Source: Haloferula sp. BvORR071
Lineage (GTDB): Bacteria; Verrucomicrobiota; Verrucomicrobiia; Verrucomicrobiales; Akkermansiaceae
Assembly: GCF_000739615.1 (NCBI RefSeq)
Contig: NZ_BATP01000039.1
Location: 186,001 to 250,000, forward strand
Reading direction: 5' to 3'
Length of the DNA: 64,000 nucleotides
In this document: one piece after another, positions 22,801 to 28,055 of the stretch
Position numbering within the stretch: the stretch's first letter is position 1
Layout: each line of letters starts with the position of its first letter
The notes under the pieces: model-generated
What the model was told of the DNA's origin: nothing
Seen by the model: only the letters and a program-made list of their open reading frames with translations
Database searches by the model: none
Made by a program: the position numbers and the translations under genes

Positions 22801-23523
22801 ATGGGCCAGAAAGTCAACCCCATCGGTTTCCGCCTCGCCGTCTCCAAAGACTGGCGCTCCAAGTGGTTCGCCGCCGGCAAGGATTACGCCGAGAAGCTCC
22901 ACGAAGATCTCCGGATCCGTGGCTACATGCGCCAGCGCCTGCAGTTCGCTGCCTTGGCCCGCGTCGTCATCGAGCGCGCTTGGAACAGCGTCCGCGTCAC
23001 GCTCCACACCTCCCGCCCGGGCCTGATCATCGGCCGCAAGGGTTCGGAAATCGAGCGCATGACCAAGGAACTCTCCGACATCTGCAAGGGTGCCCAGGTC
23101 AAGATCGACATCGTCGAAATCCGTAAGCCGGAGCTCGATGCCCAGCTGATCTGCGAGCAAGTCGCCGTCCAGCTTGAGCGCCGTATCTCTTTCCGCCGCG
23201 CCATGAAGCGCGCCGTGCAGACCGCCATGGACTTCGGTGCCGACGGCATCCGGATCCGTTGCGCCGGCCGCCTCGGTGGTGCGGACATCGCCCGCTCCGA
23301 GTGGTATCGCGAGGGCAAGGTGCCGTTGCAGACCCTGCGCGTCCCGCTTGACTACGGCTTCGCCGAAGCTCGCACCGTTTACGGCATCATCGGCATCAAG
23401 TGCTGGGTCAACAAGAAGGAAGACGACGGCTCCTCCCCGCGCCCTGAGCGTGGCGGTGACCGCCGCGACCGTCGCGACAACCGCGGCCCTGGTGGCCCGC
23501 GCCCGCCACGTGGTAACCAATAA
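22801..23523 (+). CDS. rpsC: 30S ribosomal protein S3 with Arg/Gly-rich C-terminal tail
   Basis: S3 helps form the mRNA entry channel and its helicase activity. The 240-residue protein keeps the standard core: MGQKVNPIGFRLAVSKDWRS, the KH domain with RPGLIIGRKGSEIERM, EQVAVQLERRISFRRAMKR, and the C-terminal domain GADGIRIRCAGRLGGADIAR. Beyond residue ~205 it has a low-complexity tail with repeated Arg, Gly, Asp and Pro (RPERGGDRRDRRDNRGPGG and on). S5, its structural neighbour, has a similar tail at its N-terminus. Confidence 0.97.
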   Translation: MGQKVNPIGFRLAVSKDWRSKWFAAGKDYAEKLHEDLRIRGYMRQRLQFAALARVVIERAWNSVRVTLHTSRPGLIIGRKGSEIERMTKELSDICKGAQVKIDIVEIRKPELDAQLICEQVAVQLERRISFRRAMKRAVQTAMDFGADGIRIRCAGRLGGADIARSEWYREGKVPLQTLRVPLDYGFAEARTVYGIIGIKCWVNKKEDDGSSPRPERGGDRRDRRDNRGPGGPRPPRGNQ

Positions 23524-23566
23524 GATCACTTTTCATTTTAACCATTTTCCCAAGGAGGACTGAGCC

Positions 23567-23986
23567 ATGCCCTTGATGCCCAAACGCACGAAGTTCCGGA
23601 AGTCGCACCGCGGCAGCCGGGCCGGTAACGCGCAGCGCGGAACCACCGTCGCCTTCGGTGACTTCGGACTCCAGGCGCTCGACCGCGGCTGGATGACCAA
23701 CCGCCAGATCGAAGCCTGCCGTATCGCGATCAACCGCTTCCTCAAGCGTAAAGGAAAGGTCTGGATCCGGATCTTCCCGCACAAGTCGATCACCGCCCGT
23801 CCGCCGGAAACCCGTATGGGTAAGGGCAAGGGCGCCGTTGAAGCCTGGGTGGCCGTGATTCGTCCCGGCAACATGCTGTTCGAAGTCGCCGGCGTGCCGG
23901 AATCCCAAGCCAAGGAGGCCATGCGCCTCGCTTCTTACAAGCTTGGTCTCCCGACCCGCTTCGTCGCCCGTAACCCGCACGCCTAA
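23567..23986 (+). CDS. rplP: 50S ribosomal protein L16
   Basis: L16 organises the A-site region of 23S rRNA. The 139 residues show [19 protein letters not shown] [60 protein letters not shown], and [20 protein letters not shown]. It is one of the few genes of this operon with a strong Shine-Dalgarno sequence: aaggagg lies eight bases before the ATG. Confidence 0.97.
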
Positions 23987-24035
23987 ACATCGCTGTTTAG
24001 TCGTTAGTGCCTAAAAATTAGTAATTTCCACTGTC

Positions 24036-24278
24036 ATGGCCAGCAAGACCAAGGCTCCCGCCAAAACCAAGTCCTCCAAGGCGAAGGACACCAAAGAGCT
24101 CTCCGTGAAGGAGCTCGAGACCAAGCTCCGCGACCTCAAGGAAGAAGGCTTCAACCTCCGTCTTCAGAAGGCCACCGGCACGCTTGAGAATCCCGCCCGC
24201 ATCCGCACGGTACGCCGTGAGGCTGCCCGCGTCCAAACCGCGCTCAGCGAGCACCGCAACAAGGCGGCGAAGGCTTGA
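24036..24278 (+). CDS. rpmC: 50S ribosomal protein L29 with basic N-terminal extension
   Basis: L29 sits near the tunnel exit. The family core is present: ELSVKELETKLRDLKEEGFN, LRLQKATGTLENPARIRTVR and REAARVQTALSEHRNKAAK. The 80-residue protein is longer than the usual ~65 because of an N-terminal Lys/Ala/Thr/Ser-rich stretch (residues 2-24, SKTKAPAKTKSSKAKDTKE). The start was kept at 24036; a start inside the tail cannot be excluded but no other ATG lies there. Confidence 0.93.
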   Translation: MASKTKAPAKTKSSKAKDTKELSVKELETKLRDLKEEGFNLRLQKATGTLENPARIRTVRREAARVQTALSEHRNKAAKA

Positions 24279-24319
24279 GTCGTCCCGCACCAGCAGCAAC
24301 CACCAGCGAATCCATTTCC

Positions 24320-24592
24320 ATGAGCGAGCAGCCCAACCAGGAAACCGCCGCACACGTCCGCAAGACCCGCGTCGGCGTCGTGACCTCCAACAAGATGAGC
24401 AAGACCCTCGTGGTCGAGCACGTCGCCCGGGTGCCCCACCCGAAGTTCAACAAGATCGTCAAGCGCTCCAAGAAGTACTACGTGCACGACGAGAAGGGTG
24501 AAGCCCAGATCGGTGACAAGGTCCGCATCGTCGAGACCCGCCCGCTCTCCAAGCTCAAGCGCTGGTCGCTCGAAAAGGTGCTCTCGCACTGA
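24320..24592 (+). CDS. rpsQ: 30S ribosomal protein S17
   Basis: S17 is a primary 16S binding protein with an OB fold. The 90-residue product is typical: VRKTRVGVVTSNKMSKTLVV, the HPKFNKIVKRSKKYYVHDEK loop and the ending RIVETRPLSKLKRWSLEKVL. ATG 24320 was chosen over an in-frame upstream start at 24275, because the upstream stretch overlaps the end of rpmC and does not resemble the family. The spacer to rplN is 87 bases, the longest inside the S10-spc part apart from secY. Confidence 0.96.
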   Translation: MSEQPNQETAAHVRKTRVGVVTSNKMSKTLVVEHVARVPHPKFNKIVKRSKKYYVHDEKGEAQIGDKVRIVETRPLSKLKRWSLEKVLSH

Positions 24593-26389: not shown

Positions 26390-26421
26390 GCAACCCCAAC
26401 CCGAGAAAGGAACAATACACC

Positions 26422-26961
26422 ATGTCACGAGTTGGTCTCAAACCGATTTCCCTGCCCTCCAAGGTCAGCGTGAAGGTCGATGGCGGCAAGGTCGTCGTCG
26501 AAGGCCCGAAGGGTAAGCTCGATCTCGCGCTTCCCACCGGCATCAGCATCCAGGCGGAAGAAAGCAAAGTCGTCGTTGGCCGCGCCAGCGAGGCCCGCAC
26601 CCAGCGTGCGCTGCACGGCACCGTCCGCAGCCTGGTCAATAACATGATCACCGGAGTCTCCCAAGGCTTCGTCAAGGACCTCGAAATCCAGGGCGTCGGT
26701 CTCCGTGCCGCCGTCAAGGGTGCGGATCTCGACCTGTCCTTGGGCAAGTCCCACCCGATCCTTCACCCGATCCCGGCCGGCATCACCGTCACCGTGAACG
26801 AAAACACCAAGATCAAGGTGGAAGGTATCGACAAGCAGCTCGTCGGCCAGTTCGCTGCCGACGTCCGCGGCTACTACCCGCCGGAGCCTTACAAGGGCAA
26901 GGGCGTCCGTTATGTCGGCGAGCACGTTCGCCGCAAAGAAGGCAAGAGCGTCGGCAAGTAA
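26422..26961 (+). CDS. rplF: 50S ribosomal protein L6
   Basis: L6 lies near the factor-binding site. The 179 residues show [20 protein letters not shown], the VVEGPKGKL loop, [20 protein letters not shown], and the C-terminal [40 protein letters not shown]. It is one of the few genes here with a Shine-Dalgarno-like stretch (gaaagga, about eight bases before the ATG). Confidence 0.98.
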
Positions 26962-26981
26962 TCCGCAACCCTTTCCCGAAC

Positions 26982-27338
26982 ATGAGCAAGATCAATCGCA
27001 AGGAAGGACGCCGCCGCATTCACGCGCGCATCCGCAAGAAGGTCGCCGGAACGTCCGAGCGTCCGCGCCTGGCCGTGCACTACTCCAATCAGCACGTTTA
27101 CGCCCAGATCATCGACGACGCCGCCGGCCGTACCGTCGCTTCCGCCTCGACCCTCGACAAGAGCATCGAGAAGGCCGCTTCGAACATCGAATCCGCCGCC
27201 AAGGTGGGAGCGCTCGTTGCCGAGCGTGCCAAGGCAGCCAATGTCAGCGCCGTCGTCTTCGACCGCGGCGGTCACCTCTACCACGGCAAGATCAAGGCGC
27301 TGGCCGACGCCGCCCGCGAAGCCGGTCTCCAATTCTAA
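26982..27338 (+). CDS. rplR: 50S ribosomal protein L18
   Basis: L18 brings 5S rRNA to the large subunit together with L5. The 118 residues match: [60 protein letters not shown] and [20 protein letters not shown]. It starts 21 bases after rplF, without a Shine-Dalgarno sequence. Confidence 0.98.
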
Positions 27339-27359
27339 TCGCTCTCCAGCGCAATCGAC

Positions 27360-28055
27360 ATGGTATCCCCAGATTCGAATACTCCCGCTCCGCAGCAGCC
27401 GCAGGGCCCGCAGCAGAACCAAGGTGGCGGCGGCTATAACCAAGGCGGCGGCGGTGGCTACGGCCAGCGCGGCGGCTACGGTGGCCAAAACCGCGGCCCC
27501 GGTGGTGGCTTCGGTGGCCAGAACCGCGGTCCCCGCGGTCCGCGCCGCGATGACCGCCAGCAGCAGGATCCCGACGGTCCTCAGCTCACCGAGAAGGTGG
27601 TCTTCATCAATCGCTGCGCCAAGGTCGTCAAGGGCGGCCGTCGCTTCAGCTTCTCCGCGCTTGTTGTGGCCGGTGAAAAGGAAGCCAACAAGGTCGGCCT
27701 CGGCTTCGGCAAGGCCAACGAAGTGGCTGACGCCATCAAGAAGGGCGGCGAGTCCGCCAAGAAGTCGCTCAAGAAGATGAACATCGTGGATGGAACCATT
27801 CCCCACGAAATCTACGCTGAGTTCGGCGGGGGCAAGGTGCTCCTCAAGCCGGCATCGCCGGGAACGGGCATTATCGCCGGTGGTGGCGTCCGTGCCGTCT
27901 GTGAAGCTGTGGGCATCCGCGACATCCTCGCGAAGTCCATGGGTTCCTCCAATCACTCCAACGTGGTCAAGGCCACTCTCAAGGCTCTTTCCCTGCTTCG
28001 CACCCGCGACCAGATCCTCGGATCCCGCGGCAAGAAGAAGGAAAAGGCGATCTGA
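27360..28055 (+). CDS. rpsE: 30S ribosomal protein S5 with RGG-like N-terminal extension
   Basis: S5 takes part in decoding and, with S3 and S4, forms the mRNA entry channel. The conserved core starts near residue 74 ([20 protein letters not shown], then [40 protein letters not shown] helix, and [20 protein letters not shown]). Before it is a ~73-residue low-complexity stretch made of Gln, Gly, Asn, Tyr, Arg and Pro, with repeated GG-Y/F-G and NRGP units. Normal S5 is ~165 residues; this one has 231. ATG 27360 is the only upstream start and the Gly-rich stretch is open throughout, so the extension appears real. Confidence 0.95.

What the first reader, a model, noticed from the sequence alone, without database searches (positions are those of the whole stretch)
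22801..28055. Arg/Gly-rich disordered tails on both S3 and S5, neighbours at the mRNA entry channel
S3 ends with an RG/RD/PR-rich tail of about 35 residues and S5 begins with ~73 residues of Gly/Gln/Asn/Tyr/Arg repeats reminiscent of RGG-box RNA-binding proteins. In ribosome structures S3 and S5 flank the mRNA entry site. Two tails on the same spot suggest an RNA-catching or helicase-assisting brush, possibly linked to the scarcity of Shine-Dalgarno sequences in this operon.
Basis: partly seen in the sequence, partly recalled or inferred. Interest (0 to 1): 0.7.

Follow-up and report, generated by a model that had tools for sequence, protein, structure and literature searches.

The report
Arg/Gly tails on ribosome entry proteins
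Two ribosomal proteins next to the place where mRNA enters the ribosome carry real, unstructured arginine/glycine-rich tails in this bacterium and many relatives; similar tails are known in actinobacteria and eukaryotes, and they do not track how much the bacteria rely on Shine-Dalgarno signals.

Summary
S3 carries 32 residues beyond its conserved core (9 Arg, 7 Gly); S5 carries 73 residues before its core (24 Gly, 13 Gln, 7 Arg). S5 cannot start later by translation: codon 1 is the only in-frame start between the L18 stop and codon 80. The S5 tail is not a uniform brush: a fast-changing Gly/Gln stretch leads to a fixed Arg anchor, [11 protein letters not shown] (residues 56-66), then a short acidic linker. 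In five close genomes the anchor has 57 synonymous and 0 non-synonymous differences. RG-rich S5 tails occur in 75 of 128 analysed rows of the class and 1 of 33 from the rest of the phylum; S3 tails in 32 of 128. Low Shine-Dalgarno use is real here (2 of 17 genes; anti-SD intact), but its link to the tails disappears once shared ancestry is removed (class rows, all pairings |r| <= 0.13, p >= 0.15), and the two tails come and go independently. Published actinobacterial structures place the homologous S5 extension in the mRNA entry channel, and the same initiation idea is in print for mycobacteria. New variant of a known kind.

The parts
22801..23424 (+). S3 (uS3) conserved core, residues 1-208
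   Evidence: TIGR01009 1-208, Pfam KH_2 and Ribosomal_S3_C
23425..23520 (+). S3 C-terminal R/G/P/D-rich tail, residues 209-240
   Evidence: outside the models; pLDDT below 50; pN/pS 0.11 in five close genomes
27360..27524 (+). S5 N-terminal Gly/Gln/Pro-rich brush, residues 1-55
   Evidence: single possible in-frame start; pN/pS about 0.50; low pLDDT
27525..27557 (+). S5 Arg anchor [11 protein letters not shown], residues 56-66
   Evidence: 57 synonymous, 0 non-synonymous differences over 110 codon pairs; GPRR[DE] in 24 of 97 class extensions against at most 2 in 200 shuffles
27558..27578 (+). S5 linker between anchor and core, residues 67-73
   Evidence: pN/pS 0.22; Asp/Glu 33% of the last five residues over 97 class rows
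27579..28052 (+). S5 (uS5) conserved core
   Evidence: TIGR01021 75-226
27336..27338 (+). L18 stop codon, in frame with S5, closing the S5 frame upstream

Best explanation
These are genuine lineage-specific disordered extensions of two otherwise ordinary ribosomal proteins. The S5 tail is probably a tethered RNA-contacting arm: a fixed Arg cluster ([11 protein letters not shown]), 8-18 residues before the folded core, docks on RNA at the 30S mRNA entry (16S rRNA rim or incoming mRNA), and the loose Gly/Gln-rich end beyond it sweeps or transiently fills the channel mouth, tuning mRNA loading or 30S assembly without sequence preference. The S3 tail is a second arm, gained and lost separately. 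Shown here: single possible start, predicted disorder, selection on the anchor and S3 tail, distribution, no link to SD use, no coupling of the tails. Taken from published actinobacterial structures: position at the mRNA entry. Inferred: RNA contact and effect on loading.
For: Only one possible start. Anchor 0 non-synonymous against 57 synonymous differences; S3 tail pN/pS 0.11. Position-dependent make-up with an Arg peak 11-20 residues before the core, and GPRR[DE] in 24 of 97 extensions at a nearly fixed distance, spread over 12 of 37 families in the looser form GPR[RGP]. RG-rich S5 tails in 75 of 128 class rows. Low pLDDT. Homologous uS5 extensions reach the mRNA entry channel in M. smegmatis and C. 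acnes.
Against: No verrucomicrobial ribosome structure was seen. The anchor's limits were chosen after viewing the alignment, and all five genomes are of one genus code. 25 of 37 families with a long extension lack GPR[RGP] near the core in the sampled rows, and some relatives have acidic or Ala/Glu-rich S5 extensions instead (L155, L177-L180). The brush is close to freely changing, and 53 of 128 class rows do without an S5 RG tail. Homology of the tail itself to the actinobacterial one is not shown (no hit at E <= 10 for residues 1-73).
Confidence: 0.5

Rival explanations
1. Assembly or solubility role: the tails act before or during 30S assembly (16S folding, or keeping free S3 and S5 soluble) and are idle on the mature ribosome.
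For: Disordered r-protein extensions with assembly roles are reviewed for the 50S subunit (PMC2672003, title and abstract start in a listing only); acidic or Ala/Glu-rich substitutes occur in some relatives.
Against: A fixed Arg anchor and published actinobacterial densities at the mRNA entrance point to a site on the finished subunit, but do not exclude this.
Confidence: 0.22
2. Near-neutral low-complexity growth: the tails expand and shrink by slippage at exposed termini and are merely tolerated.
For: Brush pN/pS about 0.50; S5 extension 36-73 residues within one genus code; at least 22 changes of the S5 state on the tree.
Against: Anchor with 0 non-synonymous against 57 synonymous differences and S3 tail pN/pS 0.11; position-specific make-up.
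Confidence: 0.17
3. Compensation for Shine-Dalgarno scarcity, the first reader's idea: the tails catch mRNAs that lack SD signals.
For: Own family has SD in 0.06-0.29 of genes in the 16 rows with at least 11 tested genes and usually both tails; raw correlation across the phylum; the same idea is published for leaderless mRNAs in mycobacteria.
Against: Independent contrasts near zero in every pairing while positive controls give r = 0.60 and 0.50; 9 SD-poor rows of 128 without any RG tail; 25 of 75 S5-tailed rows SD-rich.
Confidence: 0.06
4. Other RNA-related role away from initiation, such as clustering of ribosomes, hibernation or cold growth, driven by RG/Gly-rich low complexity.
For: Make-up resembles condensate-prone low-complexity segments (general knowledge, not tested here).
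Against: No call tested it.
Confidence: 0.04
5. Start-site or assembly artefact: S5 really begins near residue 73.
For: None found.
Against: No other start codon before codon 80; similar extensions in other genomes.
Confidence: 0.01

Closest known systems
N-terminal extension of actinobacterial uS5, with a long uS3 C-terminus (M. smegmatis, M. tuberculosis, C. acnes ribosomes)
   Same: R/G/D-rich extension before the same core (aligned stretch NRGGRGRRDDRG...); uS3 of 269-275 aa in the same group of PDB entries (organism names of entries are recalled). Published to reach or plug the mRNA entry channel.
   Different: Shorter extension, a C-terminal uS5 helix described for M. smegmatis and C. 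acnes that is absent here (core match runs to 226 of 231); tail homology not shown.
RG-rich N-terminus of eukaryotic uS5 (Rps2), arginine-methylated by PRMT3/Hmt1
   Same: Disordered Arg/Gly-rich N-terminus on the same ribosomal protein (PMC10216425, passages).
   Different: Here Gly/Gln-rich with one RGG; no PRMT5-family match in the own genome (other PRMT families not searched); presumably convergent.
RG-rich uS3 C-terminal tails in other phyla (Paraconexibacter, Actinomycetota; Isosphaeraceae, Planctomycetota)
   Same: Same end of uS3, Arg/Gly-rich (L231, L229).
   Different: Those loci show no long S5 extension by the same procedure (13 and 15 aa; the L229 start lies 124 bases after L18 and may be too late).

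Membership tests
bacterial uS5 (TIGR01021) | score over the curated cut-off | tested here: met
   196.4 bits against 164.05
bacterial uS3 (TIGR01009) | score over the curated cut-off | tested here: met
   289.1 bits against 114.5
actinobacterial-type uS5 extension | Arg/Gly/Asp-rich N-terminal extension before the core | tested here: met
actinobacterial-type uS5 extension | C-terminal helical extension of uS5 | tested here: not met
   core match reaches residue 226 of 231
actinobacterial-type uS5 extension | homology of the extension itself | tested here: inconclusive
   residues 1-97 hit M. smegmatis-type chains at 5.6e-6 but include core residues; residues 1-73 alone: no hit at E <= 10
actinobacterial-type uS5 extension | extension lies in the mRNA entry channel | not testable with these tools
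   needs a ribosome structure
RGG-box | several closely spaced RGG repeats (definition recalled) | tested here: not met
   one RGG and four RG in 73 residues
eukaryotic-type methylated uS5 tail | arginine methylation by a PRMT | tested here: inconclusive
   no PF05185 match in the own genome; other PRMT families not searched, methylation not measured
adaptation to Shine-Dalgarno scarcity | tail size or RG content goes with SD loss after removing shared ancestry | tested here: not met
   contrasts |r| <= 0.13, p >= 0.15 in all class pairings; independent pairs without trend, few informative

The most novel reading that the evidence does not exclude
A convergent bacterial counterpart of the eukaryotic uS5 RG tail: an Arg anchor fixes a low-complexity plug at the 30S mRNA entrance that gates mRNA loading in bacteria which keep an intact anti-SD yet hardly use SD signals, with S3 supplying an exchangeable second arm.
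Probability: 0.12. Interest if true: 0.7.

Novelty: new variant of a known kind. Interest (0 to 1): 0.36.

Why it matters
If the anchor-plus-brush arm works at the entry channel, ribosomes of three far-apart lineages (Actinomycetota, Verrucomicrobiota, eukaryotes) carry RG-rich uS5 tails there. The verrucomicrobial set, with at least 22 changes of the S5 tail on one tree, is a natural experiment for what such tails do. The tree-corrected test also warns against reading them as an answer to SD loss.

Tried and rejected
SD link: raw correlations were strong (Spearman -0.46, S5-tail G+R against SD fraction, 161 phylum rows) but vanished with independent contrasts.

Coupling of the two tails: rejected. 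RGG-box membership: rejected on counts. Later S5 start by translation: rejected.

A first synonymous/non-synonymous count was wrong because one genome (L035) has a one-residue indel in the compared stretch; it was replaced by a codon count on a protein alignment. A background count by longest non-overlapping ORFs was dropped because an antisense ORF displaced S5 itself; all ORFs of 100 aa or more were used instead. The S5 extensions came from a start rule that skipped GTG/TTG starts in some loci; one search uses a corrected rule.

The motif check on 29 own-family loci (29 of 29 with GPRR[DE] near the core) is biased: they are the best matches to the full-length query, and four are genomes already used to see the motif. 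The less biased figure is 11 of 15 own-family rows (looser GPR[RGP]).

Rows dropped before the tree: 201 loci analysed, 174 kept (S5 start and L18 found, at least 9 tree genes, S3 tail readable, at least 11 upstream regions), 170 after removing identical rows. Rows without S3 in the fetched stretch (for example L037 and L043) were lost that way. Near-identical genomes under two names may remain.

Literature: nine paper searches were answered; I saw no listed title about verrucomicrobial S3 or S5 tails. Papers were seen as passages (PMC10085706, PMC10216425, PMC10783764, PMC6133939, PMC10039652, PMC7203096) or listings; none was read whole.

Full report
What is there. The window lies in the S10/spc ribosomal-protein operon of a 7.8-Mb genome. 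S3 (240 aa) has its core in residues 1-208 and a 32-residue R/G/P/D-rich tail. S5 (231 aa) has its core from residue 75 and a 73-residue extension. The extension is not a start-codon error: the L18 stop is in frame 21 bases before the ATG, and no other ATG, GTG or TTG occurs before codon 80. AlphaFold2 models from shallow alignments give low confidence to both tails. In 409,372 bases of the own genome (base count) the S5 extension holds the second-highest 40-residue G+R count among 1230 ORFs of at least 100 aa, many of them spurious.

Anatomy of the S5 tail. Over 97 class extensions of 25 residues or more, make-up follows position: Ala/Pro-rich far end, then Gly-rich, then an Arg peak 11-20 residues before the core (31% and 28%), then acidic residues next to the core (33% Asp+Glu in the last five). 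GPRR followed by Asp/Glu occurs in 24 of 97 against a mean of 0.3 and at most 2 in 200 within-row shuffles, at a median of 14 residues before the core (10-90% range 12-16). Related rows inflate the number; by family, 12 of 37 families with such an extension have GPR[RGP] within 25 residues of the core, 25 do not. In five close genomes the anchor [11 protein letters not shown] shows 57 synonymous and no non-synonymous differences over 110 codon pairs; pN/pS is about 0.50 for the brush (gappy alignment), 0.22 for the linker, 0.08 for the S5 core, 0.11 for the S3 tail and 0.035 for the S3 core. The anchor's limits were set after seeing the alignment.

Distribution. S5 was found in 111 of 117 genomes of the family, 192 of 194 of the phylum sample and 136 of 141 of the class sample (samples overlap). 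DNA was taken from 120 places; with the window and 80 named loci this makes 201 loci, of which 170 entered the analysis. RG-rich was defined as at least 25 residues (S5) or 15 residues (S3) with at least two RG or GR. 75 of 128 class rows have the S5 kind and 32 of 128 the S3 kind; 21 have both, 42 neither. Of 33 rows outside the class but inside the phylum, 1 has the S5 kind and 7 the S3 kind; 9 further rows are from other phyla. Family f2 of the same order has long S3 tails with S5 extensions of 16-17 residues (4 rows); G015 (L049) in the own family has an S3 tail of 72 and an S5 extension of 18. The tails do not co-vary: Fisher p = 0.41, contrasts r = 0.01, p = 0.89. At least 22 changes of the S5 state and 8 of the S3 state are needed on the FastTree tree. 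Some relatives have acidic or Ala/Glu-rich S5 extensions (L155, L177-L180).

Shine-Dalgarno use. The own 16S rRNA ends in GGATCACCTCCTTT, so the anti-SD is intact. 2 of 17 tested genes of the window have AGGA, GGAG or GAGG upstream (L16 and L6). The own family ranges from 0.06 to 0.29 in the 16 rows with at least 11 tested genes; five fetched rows with 2-7 genes gave 0-0.2. Phylum rows outside the class average 0.71-0.82 by tail group. [quoted passage not shown] bS21 and a protein frame with six S1 repeats are encoded in the own genome.

Test of the proposed link. In 161 phylum rows S5-tail G+R and SD fraction correlate (Spearman -0.46), but independent contrasts give r = -0.02, p = 0.84. In the 128 class rows contrasts give r = -0.01 (S5), 0.06 (S3) and 0.03 (sum) against SD fraction, and all 28 class pairings of seven tail measures with four SD measures have |r| <= 0.13 and p >= 0.15. 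Positive controls on the same rows and tree (SD fraction against upstream G content or purine content) give r = 0.60 and 0.50. Independent pairs show no trend for S5 (18 pairs: on average 2.3 same way, 2.9 opposite, 12.8 without a difference in SD state) or S3 (7 pairs: 0, 1, 6); too few pairs differ for this second test to say much. 9 of 128 class rows are SD-poor (under 0.2) with no RG tail; 25 of the 75 with an S5 RG tail have SD in at least 40% of tested genes. SD fractions rest on at most 17 genes per genome, with starts set by homology; a weak link is not excluded.

What is known. In M. [quoted passage not shown] In C. [quoted passage not shown] Eukaryotic uS5 has an RG-rich N-terminus that is arginine-methylated (PMC10216425, passages). 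So the kind of feature, its probable place and the initiation idea are in print for other lineages. A survey of bacterial ribosomes lists an Opitutaceae bacterium as a proposed structural target for this phylum (PMC10039652, one passage). I recognised no verrucomicrobial chain among the PDB hits shown (60 of 85 and 60 of 61 sequences; the tables do not name organisms).

Verdict. The tails are real, and the anchor and S3 tail are under selection; the mechanism is inferred from homologous positions. The SD explanation is not supported. New here, as far as nine paper searches reach: the verrucomicrobial distribution, the anchor-plus-brush anatomy and the tree-corrected test.

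Noticed in passing
window 21622-22341 (+): A 239-aa protein with a signal-peptide-like start and a coiled coil sits inside the S10 operon between S19 and L22. Relatives were found in 45 of 120 loci, between S19 and L22 in the 12 whose positions were printed, including two outside the class (L071, L084); no Pfam match over cut-off. An exported-looking protein kept inside the S10 operon is unusual.
   Followed up: partly
L037 (G028, genus code g3) and L043 (G073, contig length equal to Rubritalea profundi): S3 was not found in the 19 kb around S5, and only 7 and 5 of 17 operon genes were found: the S10/spc operon looks split in these lineages.
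   Followed up: no
L155 (Roseibacillus sp.), S5 at 9530-10468: S5 carries a 156-residue Ala/Glu/Pro-rich repeat extension, while S3 of the same locus has a long RG-rich tail.
   Followed up: no
L231 (Paraconexibacter antarcticus), S3: A very long Arg/Gly-rich S3 tail in an actinobacterium with a short S5 extension.
   Followed up: no
L101 (G361; contig length equal to L225, a Chthoniobacterales bacterium): 0 of 17 tested genes have a core SD 4-mer, with a short S5 extension (21 aa) and no RG tail: another strongly SD-poor lineage in the class.
   Followed up: no
window 24036-24278, 25361-25957, 22381-22776: L29 (N-terminus), L5 and L22 (C-termini) also carry Ala/Lys-rich low-complexity ends, judged by eye.
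   Followed up: no
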